From positions 1 to 64,000 of the forward strand of contig NZ_AUMH01000015.1 in the NCBI RefSeq assembly GCF_000430585.1: DNA of 64,000 nt, written 5' to 3'. Below the pieces are notes generated by a model. The model saw only the letters and a list, made by a program, of their open reading frames with translations. It was not told the DNA's origin and made no database searches. Made by a program: the position numbers and the translations under genes. The stretch is from Alicyclobacillus herbarius DSM 13609. Lineage in GTDB: Bacteria; Bacillota; Bacilli; Alicyclobacillales; Alicyclobacillaceae. Within the stretch, counting starts at the first letter, position 1. Each line of letters starts with the position of its first letter. This document shows positions 36,310 through 42,450 of this stretch, in pieces.

Positions 36310-36356
36310 CAGTTATATCTCGGATGCATGGGGGCGAGGTGGATATAATTGGATGG

Positions 36357-36368
36357 GAACATATGTTT
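36357..36368. promoter_or_regulatory. LexA box 1
   Basis: GAACATATGTTT fits the Bacillus LexA (DinR) consensus GAAC-N4-GTTC with one change. It overlaps the -35 of the imuB promoter. Confidence 0.75.
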
Positions 36369-36394
36369 GCTTCCGCTGGGTGGGTGGATATAAT
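36367..36394 (+). promoter_or_regulatory. imuB operon promoter
   Basis: TTGCTT (36367-36372), a 16-base spacer and a perfect TATAAT (36389-36394), framed by the two LexA boxes. A second GGTGGATATAAT sequence lies at 36338-36349. Confidence 0.6.
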
Positions 36395-36407
36395 AGACGT
36401 GAATACA

Positions 36408-36419
36408 GAACATATGTTC
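36408..36419. promoter_or_regulatory. LexA box 2
   Basis: GAACATATGTTC is a perfect Bacillus-type LexA palindrome located about ten bases downstream of the predicted transcription start. Two boxes around one promoter predict tight SOS control. Confidence 0.88.
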
Positions 36420-36437
36420 CCTTTGGGGGGATTTTAG

Positions 36438-37757
36438 GTGCGGTATACATTGTTTGGTTTCGGGGAAGGGGTACGCATCGATGAAGGGTCACCCCTATGG
36501 GCTTCCATTCAATCGGGCAAGGTCAGTGACGCGTCGACGGCGGCGCGTGAGCAGGGAATTCAACCTGGGATGTCGGCGGCGACGGCACAATCTTTGCTGC
36601 CAGGGCTTCGCTTGTTTGAAGAAACGGGTTCCCCCTCACAGACGATGGAGCGGGTTTGGCATACACTGTGGAAATTCTCCCCTTGGTTAGAAACGGTCGG
36701 TTACGACTCGTTTTTTCTGCAAATCCCCGGTGCGCGTCTACCTTTTTCGGAGGTCCGGCAGATTCTGCGGCAGGTGGATGTTCAACTTCCCAGAGGGGCG
36801 CGCTTTTTCGTCGGGTTGGCTGAGACCCCCAAGTTGGCGCGGGCGCTGGTGCAATGGGCGCGGTGTCGAAGTGATCGGCCGCCTGGCGCGGGCTACAGGG
36901 TGGGCCGTCAGTATCTCTGGATTTCTCCCGTTTTCTCAAGGAAAGTAAGTGTTCCATCGGGATCGGCGGCGGATGCGGTACTTGCGCACGCTTGCGATTC
37001 TCAAGCAGATAGACGCGGACGGACAGACAGCCTTTCCATTCCCGCGCCGAAATGGATTCATGCGTTGCCTATCGACGCGATGTGGTTTCTGTCCGCAGAG
37101 GAAAGGGAAAGATTGAAGCGGTTCGGCGTGTTTCAGTATCGGGATTTATTCGACCTGCCGGATGCGGATTTCATACGGCAGTTTGGTCGGGAATCTCTTT
37201 TGTGGAAGCAGGTATTTGCCGAGATTCCTCCCGGACACCTGCAGGTCAATTATCCGCCGTTTACGTATTCGCAGATCTGGCGGGCTCATATAGGGGAAAC
37301 CTTGAGCGCTGGTCAAATCCCGGAAGTGGTCGCAAGGTTGGCGGCGCGGATTGCCGATTTTCTGGAGAAGTGGGGGAATGCCGCGCACCGGCAAGGAATT
37401 GTGTGGCGGACGGTGTCTGCAGAAGGGCGATTTGAACAGGCCACCGGGCAGCCCGTATACCGTTTGTCCACCCTGATGGCGCATTGGCAGGAAGGAATCC
37501 ATAGGTGCCAAGCGGCGGCTGAAGGGGAAGGCGGAGTGGAGACGATAAAGATCTACGTGGCCGATCTGCAGCCACTCACCGGCAGGCAATCCGGGTTCAT
37601 TTTAAAAAATGGCTTGTTGCTTCCGGACAATCTCAAAACGAAAGAGAAGCTGGAACAAATTCTCGGGCAGGTGAATGGGCGCCATCCTGGAAAACTGCGA
37701 ATTGGAATTCGCGGAAGCTTTCGCGAACTGCGTTGGAGAGCGGTGGTCGAGGCGTGA
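36438..37757 (+). CDS. imuB: ImuB-like Y-family polymerase homologue
   Basis: A 439-residue protein of the UmuC/DinB-like ImuB family. It has the ImuB-type segments AAREQGIQPGMSAATAQSLL, TLWKFSPWLETVGYDSFFLQ and the helix-hairpin-helix region LKRFGVFQYRDLFDLPDADF. The acidic catalytic residues of active Y-family polymerases are not recognisable (there is no N-terminal DMDAF and no DE pair), as expected for ImuB, which acts as a hub bridging DnaE2 and the beta clamp. GTG 36438 follows GGGGGG. First gene of the LexA-controlled operon. Confidence 0.88.
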   Translation: MRYTLFGFGEGVRIDEGSPLWASIQSGKVSDASTAAREQGIQPGMSAATAQSLLPGLRLFEETGSPSQTMERVWHTLWKFSPWLETVGYDSFFLQIPGARLPFSEVRQILRQVDVQLPRGARFFVGLAETPKLARALVQWARCRSDRPPGAGYRVGRQYLWISPVFSRKVSVPSGSAADAVLAHACDSQADRRGRTDSLSIPAPKWIHALPIDAMWFLSAEERERLKRFGVFQYRDLFDLPDADFIRQFGRESLLWKQVFAEIPPGHLQVNYPPFTYSQIWRAHIGETLSAGQIPEVVARLAARIADFLEKWGNAAHRQGIVWRTVSAEGRFEQATGQPVYRLSTLMAHWQEGIHRCQAAAEGEGGVETIKIYVADLQPLTGRQSGFILKNGLLLPDNLKTKEKLEQILGQVNGRHPGKLRIGIRGSFRELRWRAVVEA

Positions 37758-37996
37758 CAAGGATTGTCCGGCGGCCCATCGAGGTGGAAAGGTGGTATCA
37801 AGACCTCCCGTATCAATTTTGGGATCACGGAACTTTGCATCAGGTTGTGGATTGGCTTGACGACTGGAGCGAGATGGGAAACTGGTGGGACGGGGAGGGA
37901 GAACGTCAGATGATTCGAGTCTGGACGAAGGACGGGCAGATTTTTGATTTAGAGGCATCTGACGGGAAATGGTGGCTGTACAAGGTGTGGGACTGA
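37754..37996 (+). CDS. DUF6504 family protein in the mutasome operon
   Basis: An 80-residue Trp-rich protein. The pattern RRPIEVERWYQDLPYQFWDH, VVDWLDDWSE, NWWDGE, RVWTKDGQIFDL and KWWLYKVWD matches DUF6504, a small domain found next to or fused to ImuB in several phyla. GTG 37754 overlaps the imuB stop (GTGA). The gene is embedded between imuB and dnaE2, so it is probably a structural part of the mutasome. No biochemical role is known to me. Confidence 0.8.
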   Translation: MTRIVRRPIEVERWYQDLPYQFWDHGTLHQVVDWLDDWSEMGNWWDGEGERQMIRVWTKDGQIFDLEASDGKWWLYKVWD

Positions 37997-38010
37997 GGGA
38001 GTGATTGTGG

Positions 38011-41000
38011 ATGTTTGTACACCTTCACTGCCACTCCCCGTTTTCCTTTCAAGATGGAGCGTCTTCCATTGAGTCTTTGGTAGCCCAAGCCGCTGCTGTC
38101 AACATGCCCGCATTGGCGTTGACGGATCACAACACGATTGCTGGCTTGCCTGAGTTTCATCATTGGGCGTCGTTATACGGGATTCAGCCGATTTCAGGAG
38201 CGGAGTTGACCCTTGAAGACGGAACGCATTTGACACTTTTGGCGGAAACGCCCACAGGGTATGAAAACCTCTGTCGCCTGTTGACCATCGCTCATGACGG
38301 TCGCCGCCGTCAGCCGGCCTTGCCGGAACAGCACTTGTTCACTCATTCCGAAGGGTTGATTGTGCTCTCCGGGTGTCGAAGAGGGCGCATTCCGCAACAG
38401 GTCTTACAGCACCAGCCAGAGCAGGCAAAGGAGACGGCGAGGTGTTACCGGGATCGATTTCCAGGGTCGTTTTATCTCGAACTGCAAGGGGACCGATACC
38501 CGCGCAGCCAGTGGTTGAATCGACAGTTGGCGGAACTCGGAGAATCTTTGGGCATCCCGTTGGTCGCCACCAGCAACGTTCATCACGCGCAGCCGGAAGG
38601 ATTCCCGGTCTACGATATCCTTTCCTGCATGCGGCAGGGCGTGACCATTTACGATCCGTCCGCAAATCGGCCGTTCAATCCGTCCCGGTGGTTGCATGAC
38701 GCGACTGAAGCCAAGCGCCGGTTTGGGGCGTATCCGCAGGCCCTGGCCAACACCGTACGGATTGCCGAACGCTGCCAAGTGGTGGTCAAGCTGCATCGGT
38801 CTTTATTCCCGGATTACCGTCTTCCGGCTGGAGAACGGGATGCGGCCGCCTATCTGCGCAAACTGGTTTGGCGTGGGGCAGAGGAACGTTATGCTCGCAT
38901 CGACCACCGTCTTCGGGAGCGGTTGGAACACGAACTGACGATTATCGAACGACTGGGATATGTCGATTATTTCCTTACGGTTTGGGACATCGCCAACTAC
39001 GCGAGAAGCCATCGCATCCGCTACGCGGGCAGGGGGTCTGCGGCCGATTCCGCCGTCGCCTATTGCTTATACATCACGGATGTCGATGCGGCAGGGCGTG
39101 GACTGCTGTTCGAGCGATTTATGAGCCTTGAGCGTGCGGAAAAGCCAGACATCGATATCGATTTTGACAGCCGCCGCCGGGATGAGGTGATGGAGTATGT
39201 CTATCGGAAGTACGGAGAGCAGCACGTGGCGCGTGTCGCCACCTACCAGACGTTTCGTGGCAAGTCGGCGATCCGGTCGGTCGGGGCTGCCTTGGCCTTG
39301 CCCGATGCGCTGCTCTGTGAGCTGGCCAAGCGACTGCCCTGGGGGGCACATGCGGATCGGCTCGAAGAGTTGTTGGAGAAGGTCCCCGAATTGCGGCCCT
39401 ATCAGACATATCGTTCGCAATTAATCTGGTTGTGGCGATTGTCTGCCCAGATTGCTGGTTTTCCCCGTCATTTTGGTCTTCACCTGGGCGGGGTGGTTAT
39501 CAGCCGGCAGCCCTTATATGAAGTGACTTCTCTGCAGCCTTCGGCAAAGGGGGAGTGGATGACCCCTTTTGATAAAGACGCGGCGGAAATGGTGGGTTTC
39601 GTGAAGTTAGACTTATTATCGTTGCGGACGATGTCTGCTATTGATGACGTGGTGCACTTGCGGGAGCGGCAAGGGAAATCGTTGGATTATGAAAATATTC
39701 CCTTGGATGATAGAGCGACGTTCGAGCGAATCGGGAGAGGGGATACGGTTGGCGTCTTCCAACTGGAGAGCCCGGCGCAACGCGCGTTGCAATCCCGATT
39801 GCAGCCAGACCAGCTGGAAGACATTGTAGCCAGCGTCGCGCTGATTCGACCGGGTCCCATCAAAGGAAACATGGTCGATCCGTTTTTACGCCGGCGCAAA
39901 GGGCTGGAGCCGATTTCTTACCTGCACCCGAAGTTAGAGCCGATTCTCGGCAAGACGTACGGAGTGGTTCTGTTTCAGGAACAAGTGATTGAGATTGCGA
40001 CGGCCATTGCGCAGTTCACGCCGGGCGAGGCTGACCAGCTGCGACGCGTCATGAGTCATGCGCGATCGGCTGCGGAGATGAAAAAAATCGGGTCTCGATT
40101 TCTTGAGAAGGCCATTCAGGCGGGGGTAGAGGCGGACCTGGCGAATACGATTTTTTCCTATATCCAATCGTATTCGAGTTATGGGTTTTGCGAGGCGCAC
40201 GCCGCAGCCTTTGCCACGACTGCCTACAAGACCGCGTATTTGCTGGAACATTACCCGGCAGAGTTTTATGCCGCGATTTTGAACCAGTACCCGATGGGCT
40301 ATTACCCGCTGCACGTGATTGCAGCCGAAGCGAGACGGCGCGGGATTTCGATTCTTGGGGTGGACATCAACGCGAGCGAATGGCCCTGCAGGGTGGTGAA
40401 TGGACAAATTCGCTTGGGGTTTCGTTTGATTAAAGGGAGCCAAGAGACCGTTGTCCAGCGCTTGATTCGTGAACGGGAGAAGGGTGGCCCGTTCCAGTCC
40501 GTCTGGGAGGTTCTCGCTCGGGTTCCGGAGCTGGATTCCCTTTTCGCAGAGTGCTTAATCCGCGTCGGCGCGTTTGACGGATTGGATGCCCGGCGTAGGC
40601 ATCTATTGTGGCGGTTGCCCGGCTGGCTGCAGGAACGGCGCAAGAAAAAAGACGACCTGCCGCTTCTACCGGATGCTCTTGGCGATGCAAACCGTTCTGG
40701 AAATCGGTCGGACGAGTACGGAGATTTGCCGCTTGTCGTGAAATTGACGGATGAGTACAGCCTGCTGGGAATCGGACTCTCCGGCCACTGGCTGGAACTT
40801 TATCGTCCGTCTTTAACGCGGATGGGGTATGTTCCGATTGCAAGTTTACAGCACTATCCCGATGGGGAGCAGGTCTATACCGCGGGTCTCGTGGTTTGTC
40901 CGCATCGTCCTCCAACCAAGAGTGGGCGGACTGTTGTCTTTTTTTCGCTGGAAGATGAAAGCGGCTTGATTGACGCCACCATGTTTGAATCCGTGTATCA

Positions 41001-41136
41001 ACGTAGCGGCGCGATTCTTTTCACTCCTCAGGGAAGGATGGTTGGCATACGCGCCGAGGTGCAGCGACGTGGCGGCTCCCGGCCCCAGCTGTCGGTGTTG
41101 GAAGTGATCCCGTTGCCGAAACTTCGCGCCATTTAA
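38011..41136 (+). CDS. dnaE2: error-prone DNA polymerase DnaE2
   Basis: A 1041-residue C-family polymerase. The N-terminal PHP domain begins FVHLHCHSPFSFQDGASSI and contains LALTDHNTIAG. The catalytic acidic motif is PDIDIDFDSRRRDEV (Asp near 380 and 382), with a palm block YAGRGSAADSAVAYCLY, and an OB-fold follows toward the C-terminus (VFFSLEDESGLIDATMFE). The length and its ImuB/DUF6504 context identify DnaE2 rather than the replicative DnaE. ATG 38011 was chosen over TTG 38005, with GAGGGAG upstream. It performs induced mutagenesis under LexA control in characterised relatives. Confidence 0.92.
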   Translation: MFVHLHCHSPFSFQDGASSIESLVAQAAAVNMPALALTDHNTIAGLPEFHHWASLYGIQPISGAELTLEDGTHLTLLAETPTGYENLCRLLTIAHDGRRRQPALPEQHLFTHSEGLIVLSGCRRGRIPQQVLQHQPEQAKETARCYRDRFPGSFYLELQGDRYPRSQWLNRQLAELGESLGIPLVATSNVHHAQPEGFPVYDILSCMRQGVTIYDPSANRPFNPSRWLHDATEAKRRFGAYPQALANTVRIAERCQVVVKLHRSLFPDYRLPAGERDAAAYLRKLVWRGAEERYARIDHRLRERLEHELTIIERLGYVDYFLTVWDIANYARSHRIRYAGRGSAADSAVAYCLYITDVDAAGRGLLFERFMSLERAEKPDIDIDFDSRRRDEVMEYVYRKYGEQHVARVATYQTFRGKSAIRSVGAALALPDALLCELAKRLPWGAHADRLEELLEKVPELRPYQTYRSQLIWLWRLSAQIAGFPRHFGLHLGGVVISRQPLYEVTSLQPSAKGEWMTPFDKDAAEMVGFVKLDLLSLRTMSAIDDVVHLRERQGKSLDYENIPLDDRATFERIGRGDTVGVFQLESPAQRALQSRLQPDQLEDIVASVALIRPGPIKGNMVDPFLRRRKGLEPISYLHPKLEPILGKTYGVVLFQEQVIEIATAIAQFTPGEADQLRRVMSHARSAAEMKKIGSRFLEKAIQAGVEADLANTIFSYIQSYSSYGFCEAHAAAFATTAYKTAYLLEHYPAEFYAAILNQYPMGYYPLHVIAAEARRRGISILGVDINASEWPCRVVNGQIRLGFRLIKGSQETVVQRLIREREKGGPFQSVWEVLARVPELDSLFAECLIRVGAFDGLDARRRHLLWRLPGWLQERRKKKDDLPLLPDALGDANRSGNRSDEYGDLPLVVKLTDEYSLLGIGLSGHWLELYRPSLTRMGYVPIASLQHYPDGEQVYTAGLVVCPHRPPTKSGRTVVFFSLEDESGLIDATMFESVYQRSGAILFTPQGRMVGIRAEVQRRGGSRPQLSVLEVIPLPKLRAI

Positions 41137-41141
41137 GTGCG

Positions 41142-41183
41142 TTGTCCGGGTGGGAGTGCTGTCTCCTTTCCGGACAATCTTTA
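41142..41183 (+). terminator. terminator after dnaE2
   Basis: TTGTCCGG (41142-41149) pairs with CCGGACAA (41170-41177), with a further GGAG/CTCC inner helix and a TCTTTAT tail. No gene is seen in the rest of the gap up to 41382. Confidence 0.55.
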
Positions 41184-41382
41184 TACGTTGGCCAGTTCCA
41201 ACTCTATCTTGTATGATGGACTTCGTGTGCAGCGGGGCGATGCAGCTTGTATCGCAGTCCATCTTCACTACAACAGAAACATAGGTTTTTGTAAATGATC
41301 GGATTGAAAACAGGTGTATTCCAGATGACTGCGAATATATAGCTGTATGATGATTCGACTGTTCAACAGGGAGGAAGTCGTG

Positions 41383-42450
41383 ATGCACCTGTCGACCCGA
41401 TTTCGCAGTTATGGACTGCGCCTTCTCATCTTCGTCGCGTTTACGGTCAGTATCTTATTTCTTCCAGCCTGCGGAAGTGCTGCTTCGTCTCCAAAGGAAG
41501 GGCGTCTGCCTGCGCCCGTCAGCCAGAATGGCGCAACTCTGGATTGGGGTAAGGATGTCAAGGACACCGCGTTAAAGATGATTCGCCAGAGCCGTCATTA
41601 CTGCTATCTCGATATCTATGAATTGTCCGATCCCGATATCCTACAAGCCCTTGTGAAGGCGAAAAGGCGTCACGTGGATGTTCGAGTCGTGGTCGATGCG
41701 TCCGAGTCCCATTCACAGGAAAAGGCGGTCCCTACGTTGCGACACGCTGGGGTACCAGTCGAATCGCTACGCATTCACGAAGGCATTTCCCACATCAAAA
41801 TGCTGATTGCAGATGGGAATCATGCCGGTGTCTTGATTGGCGGGATGAACTTTGGCGAGAGCAGTTGGGAGAATAACGACGCCTCCGTCTATCTCCGTGA
41901 CCCGAATCCCTCTTTTCTCGCCCTGTTTCGTTGGGACTGGAAACGGGCCGAAGGCATACCGGCAGCAGCACCGAAGACGCAAATGCCACTCATCACGGAC
42001 CGGGAGATCAAGGGACAAGTGGTTCAAGCCATCCAGTCGGCACGGCAGTTGATTTGCCTGGAGGCGTTTGATTTAACCGATGATACAGTGCTAAACGCCC
42101 TCTCGGCCGCCATCAATCGCGGCGTCATTGTTGAGGTTCTGCTTGATCCGAATCAATCCTATAATCGAGATGCCGCCGAGGAACTGCGCGATGCCGGCGC
42201 CACGGTGCGCTTTTACCGCCCATATGGGAGGGAGTGGATGCACGCGAAAATCCTCGATGTCGACCACGGTTCCACTTTCATCATTGGAAGCGCCAATTTC
42301 AGTCATCAGGCATACACGTACAATCATGAAGGTGACCTCGAACTCCATGACATGAAGCGGTTTGATATCTCCTTTCAAGCGGATTTCTCAGTTCAGATTT
42401 CGCGTGGCACGGACTATCCGGTCCGTGATGGCAGGCGGGGCGGAGATTAG
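41383..42450 (+). CDS. phospholipase D-like lipoprotein
   Basis: A 355-residue exported lipoprotein: signal peptide with lipobox LPACG near residue 28, then two PLD domains. Both HKD motifs are complete: HIKMLIADGNHAGVLIGG (about 137) and HAKILDVDHGSTFIIGSANF (about 287). It should hydrolyse or transfer phosphodiester bonds outside the cell, perhaps on phospholipids or as a cardiolipin-synthase-like enzyme. ATG 41383 lies eight bases after GGGAGGA. The PAP2 phosphatase gene follows three bases later, making a plausible phospholipid-processing pair. Confidence 0.88.
   Translation: MHLSTRFRSYGLRLLIFVAFTVSILFLPACGSAASSPKEGRLPAPVSQNGATLDWGKDVKDTALKMIRQSRHYCYLDIYELSDPDILQALVKAKRRHVDVRVVVDASESHSQEKAVPTLRHAGVPVESLRIHEGISHIKMLIADGNHAGVLIGGMNFGESSWENNDASVYLRDPNPSFLALFRWDWKRAEGIPAAAPKTQMPLITDREIKGQVVQAIQSARQLICLEAFDLTDDTVLNALSAAINRGVIVEVLLDPNQSYNRDAAEELRDAGATVRFYRPYGREWMHAKILDVDHGSTFIIGSANFSHQAYTYNHEGDLELHDMKRFDISFQADFSVQISRGTDYPVRDGRRGGD

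What the first reader, a model, noticed from the sequence alone, without database searches (positions are those of the whole stretch)
36338..41183. SOS mutagenesis cassette imuB-DUF6504-dnaE2 with two LexA boxes and no ImuA
Two Bacillus-type LexA boxes flank the promoter of a coupled operon. ImuB lacks polymerase catalytic residues, DnaE2 is complete, and a free DUF6504 protein occupies the place where an ImuA/RecA-like partner would be expected. DUF6504 may replace ImuA or act as the linker between ImuB and the polymerase. This is the clearest candidate for an incompletely described system in the window.
Basis: partly seen in the sequence, partly recalled or inferred. Interest (0 to 1): 0.7.

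Follow-up and report, generated by a model that had tools for sequence, protein, structure and literature searches.

The report
SOS error-prone polymerase operon, split ImuB
This is a DNA-damage-induced operon for an error-prone DNA polymerase in an Alicyclobacillus-type bacterium; the small unknown protein in it is the detached tail domain of a known partner protein, so the system is essentially already described.

Summary
Window 36338-41183 carries an operon under LexA boxes: a catalytically dead Y-family polymerase (iPolY, 36438-37757), an 80-residue DUF6504 protein (37754-37996) and DnaE2 (38011-41136). Two LexA boxes lie 51 bp apart around the -10 element. The genome has RecA; no ImuA was found.

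The suggestion that DUF6504 replaces ImuA is not supported. DUF6504 is the ImuB-C domain, the C-terminal part of ordinary ImuB, encoded as a separate gene: Pfam PF20114 hits the C-terminus of two of four canonical ImuBs tested, and the Deinococcus deserti ImuB-C is annotated DUF6504. iPolY plus DUF6504 is a split ImuB. This system is published: the Kyrpidia tusciae operon (2019), the DnaE2X-iPolY-ImuBC-RecA class (2026), and imuY-imuB-C-dnaE2 of Deinococcus, where imuY and dnaE2 mutants lose UV mutagenesis. RecA is the presumed ImuA substitute; my sequence test of the RecA-NT motif was marginal.

Added here: iPolY occurs in 34 of 41 genomes of the family. All 34 loci have a two-operator promoter; box 1 ends in GTTT (apparently merging with the -35) in 33. 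In A. pomorum ImuB-C has left the operon but has its own LexA box. Verdict: new member of a known kind.

The parts
36339..36349 (+). Upstream copy of a duplicated GTGGATATAAT; possible extra -10 element. Not present within 40 bases before box 1 in the 33 relatives (one, L049, has a TATAAT there)
   Evidence: function inferred
36357..36368 (+). LexA box 1, GAACATATGTTT; its last 3 bases overlap the presumed -35 (36366-36371)
   Evidence: box 1 ends GTTT in 33 of 34 family loci
36366..36394 (+). Presumed sigma-A-type promoter: TTTGCT, 17 bp, TATAAT (36389-36394)
   Evidence: Sequence; exact TATAAT between the boxes in 32 of 34 loci; -35 assigned by eye
36408..36419 (+). LexA box 2, GAACATATGTTC, just downstream of the -10
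   Evidence: ends GTTC in 34 of 34 loci
36438..37757 (+). iPolY (ImuY/ImuB-like inactive Y-family polymerase without ImuB-C), 439 aa
   Evidence: Pfam IMS; catalytic residues lost; conserved Q384 at the clamp-motif position; RecA-NT-like tail near residues 404-425
37754..37996 (+). Standalone ImuB-C (DUF6504), 80 aa, GTGA overlap with iPolY
38011..41136 (+). DnaE2 error-prone C-family polymerase, 1041 aa
41141..41178 (+). Intrinsic-terminator-like hairpin
   Evidence: z -4.5, 0 of 200 shuffles as stable; the T run after it is short

Best explanation
A LexA-repressed translesion-synthesis operon of the DnaE2-iPolY-ImuB-C type. Shown from sequence: tandem LexA operators around the promoter, a dead Y-family scaffold, a separately encoded ImuB-C domain, an intact DnaE2, and no detectable ImuA in the genome. 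Inferred: damage makes RecA filaments, LexA is cleaved and both operators are freed; iPolY and ImuB-C assemble in trans into what is one ImuB chain in other bacteria; ImuB-C docks the DnaE2 PHP domain while the iPolY thumb contacts the DnaE2 (HhH)2 region (contacts taken from the published model of the mycobacterial complex); iPolY brings the set to the sliding clamp; DnaE2 copies past the lesion with errors. RecA bound through the iPolY tail most likely takes the place of ImuA, but this last step is the least certain (about 0.6).
For: DUF6504 = ImuB-C: PF20114 hits Ensifer ImuB 428-504 and Sphingomonas ImuB 538-607 above cut-off, and D. deserti ImuB-C; D. deserti ImuB-C is annotated DUF6504; standalone ImuB-C against a profile of 7 canonical ImuB C-termini scores 39.5 against a shuffle maximum of 17.9, n=100. 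Thermus brockianus carries an iPolY-like protein whose C-terminal end resembles ImuB-C (tblastn 1e-3) before dnaE, with no ImuA annotated in the stretch. Linkage: iPolY in 34 of 41 family genomes; of those 34 loci, 33 have ImuB-C between iPolY and DnaE2, 34 have a DnaE2 match (one broken), 34 have the operator pair. A. pomorum has ImuB-C elsewhere with its own LexA box 18 bp before its ATG. No ImuA found, one RecA. Literature: PMC6511836 section 17, PMC12926913 sections 20 and 22, PMC8072749 passages (UV mutagenesis lost in imuY and dnaE2 mutants of D. deserti).
Against: The RecA-binding motif is weak: a profile of 18 of the then 21 family tails against 25 of 30 RecA N-termini scored 13.7, reached by 1 of 100 column shuffles; with the Deinococcus and Thermus tails added the score fell to 11.7. 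The motif's helix-ending Gly is Pro in 41 of 42 tails (34 family loci, 2 of another family, 5 Deinococcus, 1 Thermus; the other has Gln). My 20-row DnaE tree puts the Alicyclobacillus-family DnaE2 in its own clade, not with the Deinococcus/Thermus ones. The ImuB-C profile match to canonical ImuBs is partial (62 columns), and PF20114 missed two of four canonical ImuBs and the Thermus protein, and scored the window protein and two of three relatives tested under its cut-off. No complex was modelled here. In G014 dnaE2 is a remnant, and 3 of 33 good-quality family genomes lack iPolY, so the system is dispensable.
Confidence: 0.87

Rival explanations
1. DUF6504 is a functional replacement for ImuA, acting as the RecA-like partner of ImuB.
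For: It sits in the operon where a third subunit is expected, and no ImuA was found.
Against: Homologous to the ImuB C-terminus; predicted nearly all-beta 80-residue fold, pLDDT 92. Canonical ImuBs of Ensifer and Sphingomonas carry this domain and still have an ImuA gene beside them.
Confidence: 0.04
2. iPolY, ImuB-C and DnaE2 suffice, and no RecA-type subunit is in the complex; RecA only induces the operon.
For: Degenerate RecA-NT motif with Gly to Pro in 41 of 42 tails. For Deinococcus it is stated as unknown whether RecA is needed directly (PMC8072749).
Against: Published AlphaFold models of representatives of all 11 module types exceed confidence thresholds (PMC12926913). The tail aligns with RecA-NT in the expected register.
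Confidence: 0.3
3. The operon is a decaying relic with no current role.
For: dnaE2 is a remnant in G014; IS-like fragment before iPolY in G030; iPolY absent from 3 of 33 good genomes.
Against: All three genes open in 32 of the 34 loci (not G014, not A. pomorum); operator pair in 34 of 34; invariant residues in iPolY and ImuB-C.
Confidence: 0.03

Closest known systems
Kyrpidia tusciae inactive PolY - standalone ImuB-C - DnaE2 operon (PMC6511836); DnaE2X-iPolY-ImuBC-RecA class (PMC12926913)
   Same: Gene set, dead polymerase, standalone ImuB-C, no ImuA found; the host also has another DnaE and a PolC-like protein (PolC is my reading)
   Different: The K. tusciae record itself was not compared
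[quoted passage not shown]
   Same: imuY-imuB-C-dnaE2 order, ImuA absent, LexA/RecA control, 80-81 aa ImuB-C
   Different: lexA is inside the operon there; ImuB-C only 27-32% identical to the window's; DnaE2 in a separate clade in my tree
Canonical ImuA-ImuB-DnaE2 mutasome (Mycobacterium, Pseudomonas, Caulobacter)
   Same: Dead Y-family protein, ImuB-C domain, DnaE2, SOS control
   Different: No ImuA found; ImuB-C split off as its own gene

Membership tests
DnaE2X-iPolY-ImuBC(-RecA) system | Catalytically inactive Y-family protein | tested here: met
   SIDE Glu lost in 21 of 21, first Asp absent by inspection
DnaE2X-iPolY-ImuBC(-RecA) system | Standalone ImuB-C | tested here: met
DnaE2X-iPolY-ImuBC(-RecA) system | DnaE2 with intact polymerase motif | tested here: met
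   PDIDIDF at residue 379; error-prone DNA polymerase model 3e-257 but 857 bits, under its 939 cut-off
DnaE2X-iPolY-ImuBC(-RecA) system | ImuA absent from the genome | tested here: met
   with two positive controls; genome 99.97% complete in 57 contigs
DnaE2X-iPolY-ImuBC(-RecA) system | RecA-NT motif in the PolY tail | tested here: inconclusive
   Right register, but 1 of 100 shuffles scores as high, and Gly is Pro
DnaE2X-iPolY-ImuBC(-RecA) system | DnaE2 falls in the DnaE2X clade | tested here: inconclusive
   20-row tree, long branches; outside both the DnaE2A rows and the Deinococcus/Thermus clade; no K. tusciae row
DnaE2X-iPolY-ImuBC(-RecA) system | RecA is a subunit of the complex | not testable with these tools
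   No complex modelling or experiment available
Canonical ImuA-ImuB-DnaE2 mutasome | ImuA present | tested here: not met
Canonical ImuA-ImuB-DnaE2 mutasome | ImuB-C fused to the Y-family domain | tested here: not met
   iPolY ends at 37757 after the RecA-NT-like tail; ImuB-C is a separate ORF
LexA (SOS) regulon | Operator matching the one at the organism's own lexA | tested here: met
   Same perfect GAACATATGTTC at the lexA promoter

The most novel reading that the evidence does not exclude
In this lineage the iPolY tail no longer binds RecA in the RecA-filament manner: the near-universal Gly to Pro change and the conserved [FLY]RE tail form a new docking site for the free ImuB-C subunit. The result would be a RecA-free, three-protein mutasome that assembles only when all parts are made together, under a two-operator LexA switch.
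Probability: 0.12. Interest if true: 0.5.

Novelty: new member of a known kind. Interest (0 to 1): 0.25.

Why it matters
It links the database label DUF6504 to the ImuB-C domain, which clears up one unknown-function family. It also offers a natural experiment: A. pomorum has ImuB-C outside the operon but with its own LexA box, an independent argument that ImuB-C is a working SOS subunit. The conserved operator pair in the Alicyclobacillus family gives a clean promoter for testing how tandem LexA sites control mutagenesis.

Tried and rejected
DUF6504 as ImuA substitute: rejected. A second RecA or ImuA elsewhere in the genome: none found; PF00154 gave RecA, a weak 457-aa hit (RadA-like, my reading) and a stop-containing fragment. 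The NCBI ImuA model NF033429 was a poor detector (rings in 11 of 14 controls, over cut-off in 0, and hits only RecA here), so I built an ImuA profile with positive controls.
A fold relative for ImuB-C: Foldseek found nothing at E below 0.001; VIA-align best Z 5.5, which the tool calls common; PDB sequence search best E 0.23. Absence of a match does not show that the fold is new. The iPolY model is poor (pLDDT 58) and was not used.
The first genome-contig query failed for lack of a conserved stretch; a smaller, closer alignment worked and gave 8 loci.
Homology of the tail with RecA-NT could not be established by my own test. Kyrpidia identity of G099/G118 is a guess from genome size.
Rows dropped: the Thermomicrobium ImuB-like protein was left out of the canonical ImuB C-terminal profile; 3 of 21 family tails (the window, L046, L047) and 5 of 30 RecA loci fell out of the RecA-NT test because my search patterns missed them; the DnaE tree used the window and 8 of the 20 relatives then in hand. 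The Deinococcus and Thermus tails were found by searching for the R[FY]P letters themselves, and lie at the same aligned columns.
Full report
What is there. Window 36438-41136 (+) holds three closely spaced genes: a 439-aa Y-family-like protein (Pfam IMS, 1.1e-7), an 80-aa DUF6504 protein and a 1041-aa DnaE-type polymerase with PHP, DNA_pol3_alpha, finger, HHH and OB domains. The DUF6504 start is best placed at GTG 37754, overlapping the iPolY stop as GTGA. The same 4-base overlap occurs in 11 of the 19 relatives measured (the 13 loci fetched later were not measured). A hairpin follows at 41141-41178.

Regulation. LexA boxes at 36357 (GAACATATGTTT) and 36408 (GAACATATGTTC) bracket a TATAAT at 36389. 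The genome's lexA promoter carries the same perfect box plus a one-mismatch copy (LexA identified by Pfam). The perfect 12-mer occurs only 3 times in 3.3 Mb; with up to one mismatch there are 11 sites against 1 for the control. Some of the 11 lie inside genes and are probably chance. recA has a related site, GAACAGGTGTTTGC, beginning 138 bp before its start. The GTTTGC end shared with box 1 suggests that the LexA half-site doubles as the -35 element; this is inference.

Family survey. iPolY was found in 34 of 41 genomes of the family (30 of 33 good-quality ones). I read all 34 loci (20, 13, and the window), analysed together. A pair of GAACN4GTTY boxes 42-53 bp apart is present in 34 of 34. 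My filter asked for spacing 38-60, so the narrow 42-53 range is the informative part. Box 1 ends GTTT in 33, box 2 ends GTTC in 34, and exact TATAAT lies between them in 32. The exception for box 1 is G030 (L048), where the pair lies 389 bp before iPolY with an IS-like fragment between (the IS nature is my reading). ImuB-C lies between iPolY and dnaE2 in 33 of 34. In G014 only four separated stretches of dnaE2 remain, without residues 138-391, so it is a remnant. All 8 named loci are Alicyclobacillus; A. shizuokensis and A. kakegawensis are nearest (56 and 55%). The family name Alicyclobacillaceae is recalled, and the exact species of the window is unknown.

Beyond the family. Among 299 genomes of the class, 45 match the iPolY profile at 1e-6: 22 strong ones in the family, 2 in one other family (6.9e-35 and 2.8e-31), and 21 weak partial ones (7.9e-10 or weaker; probably active Y-family polymerases, my reading). 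The two outsiders carry iPolY, ImuB-C and DnaE2 together but no LexA box of this type in the 9 kb read.

Its ImuB-C is on another contig (79 aa), with a box GAACGTTTGTTC (plus strand of the locus) 18 bp before the ATG and a transposase-like ORF nearby (the transposase is my reading). So ImuB-C sits elsewhere but under a LexA box.

What DUF6504 is. PF20114 matches the C-terminal end of Ensifer and Sphingomonas ImuB above its cut-off and the D. deserti 80-aa protein; it misses the Cupriavidus and Burkholderia ImuBs and the Thermus protein; of three family ImuB-Cs one is over the cut-off and two are under it. PLSDB records call the D. deserti gene DUF6504 and also label the Sphingomonas ImuB 'DUF6504 family protein'. 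Profile comparison gives 97.8% probability between Alicyclobacillus and Deinococcus ImuB-C, and 78-92% to the C-termini of 7 canonical ImuBs. All three comparisons to canonical ImuB exceed the best of 100 column shuffles. Across 24 standalone sequences W38, G42, W44, W45, W73 and D80 are invariant besides the start. The model is nearly all-beta, pLDDT 92, without a convincing PDB relative.

What iPolY is. The catalytic carboxylates are gone: the Glu of SIDE is replaced in 21 of 21; the Asp before it is kept in 10 of 21; the first Asp is absent (N-terminus by inspection). A Gln stands in all 21 at the position of the clamp-binding motif of the genome's active Y-family polymerase (VQLSLF), but the rest of that motif is degenerate. 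The tail resembles RecA-NT (QVNGRHPGKLRIG against KKIEKDFGKGSVMWLG in the genome's RecA). The profile score, from 18 of 21 tails and 25 of 30 RecAs, was 13.7, with 1 of 100 shuffles as high; adding the Deinococcus and Thermus tails lowered it to 11.7. The motif Gly is Pro in 33 of 34 family tails (Gln in the other), 2 of 2 in the other family, 5 of 5 Deinococcus and 1 of 1 Thermus (read by eye). After it comes a conserved R-E within [FLY]RE in the family.

DnaE2. The genome also has another DnaE and a PolC-like protein (PolC by my reading). In a 20-row tree the nine family DnaE2s form one clade (100/100), apart from the DnaE2A rows and from Deinococcus/Thermus; long branches make the deeper order unsafe.

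No ImuA. My ImuA profile finds the ImuAs of two control plasmids at 1.6e-119 and 3.9e-81. In this genome its one hit is RecA (4.2e-7). In the relatives searched the best hits were 1.8e-7 (G030), 5.0e-7 (G021), 5.7e-7 and 0.0033 (G022) and 0.04 (G017), and in the D. deserti plasmid 2.4e-8; I did not identify the proteins under these.

Literature. Timinskas and Venclovas 2019 (PMC6511836; passages and section 17 read) describe this operon type in Kyrpidia tusciae and propose RecA in place of ImuA. The 2026 survey (PMC12926913; [quoted passage not shown] Aravind 2013 (PMC3765255; passages) named ImuB-C. The Deinococcus review (PMC8072749; abstract and passages) reports loss of UV mutagenesis in imuY and dnaE2 mutants of D. 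deserti; the passages I read mention no ImuB-C mutant. PMC11791113 (passages) shows that the RecA-NT motif of mycobacterial ImuB is critical for binding ImuA', while removal of ImuB-C does not prevent it. dnaE2 in A. acidocaldarius was noted in 2012 (PMC3274465; one passage). I found no paper on the operator pair: 'DUF6504' is in 0 papers; 'Alicyclobacillus' + 'SOS response' + 'LexA' in 5, 4 listed, of which I read one passage of PMC3274465 and otherwise titles and abstract starts; 'Alicyclobacillus' + 'DnaE2' in 2, a passage of each read.

Verdict. The puzzle it raised is solved by identifying DUF6504 with ImuB-C. The system belongs to a published class; the regulatory conservation and the A. 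pomorum relocation are small additions. Whether RecA is a subunit remains open.

Noticed in passing
L158:3427-3666 (-), G017 contig 33 (A. pomorum): ImuB-C gene outside the operon, with its own LexA box and a transposase-like ORF nearby (my reading).
   Followed up: yes
L173 (G014): dnaE2 is a remnant: four separated stretches match, residues 138-391 (with the PDIDIDF motif) are missing, while iPolY and ImuB-C remain open.
   Followed up: partly
L048 reversed, about 440-800 (G030): IS-like fragment (my reading) between the LexA-box pair and iPolY; an extra LexA box lies next to the gene.
   Followed up: partly
L083:3337-4668, Thermus brockianus pTB1: iPolY-like protein with an ImuB-C-like end, downstream of an S24 peptidase (LexA-like) gene; no ImuA annotated in the stretch read.
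   Followed up: partly
window 36339-36349 and 36384-36394: Duplicated GTGGATATAAT, one copy before each LexA box; none of the 33 relatives has the upstream copy within 40 bases, though L049 has a TATAAT there.
   Followed up: partly
L006, own genome contig 12: Radical-SAM gene with a perfect LexA box, followed by a uvrB-like gene (my reading); apparent SOS gene.
   Followed up: no
L009, own genome contig 4: Active-looking Y-family polymerase with a LexA-like box (one mismatch) and a RecA-NT-like tail that keeps Gly.
   Followed up: no
window 41347-42450: Phospholipase-D-like (PLDc_2) protein with what looks like a lipoprotein signal, directly after the operon.
   Followed up: no
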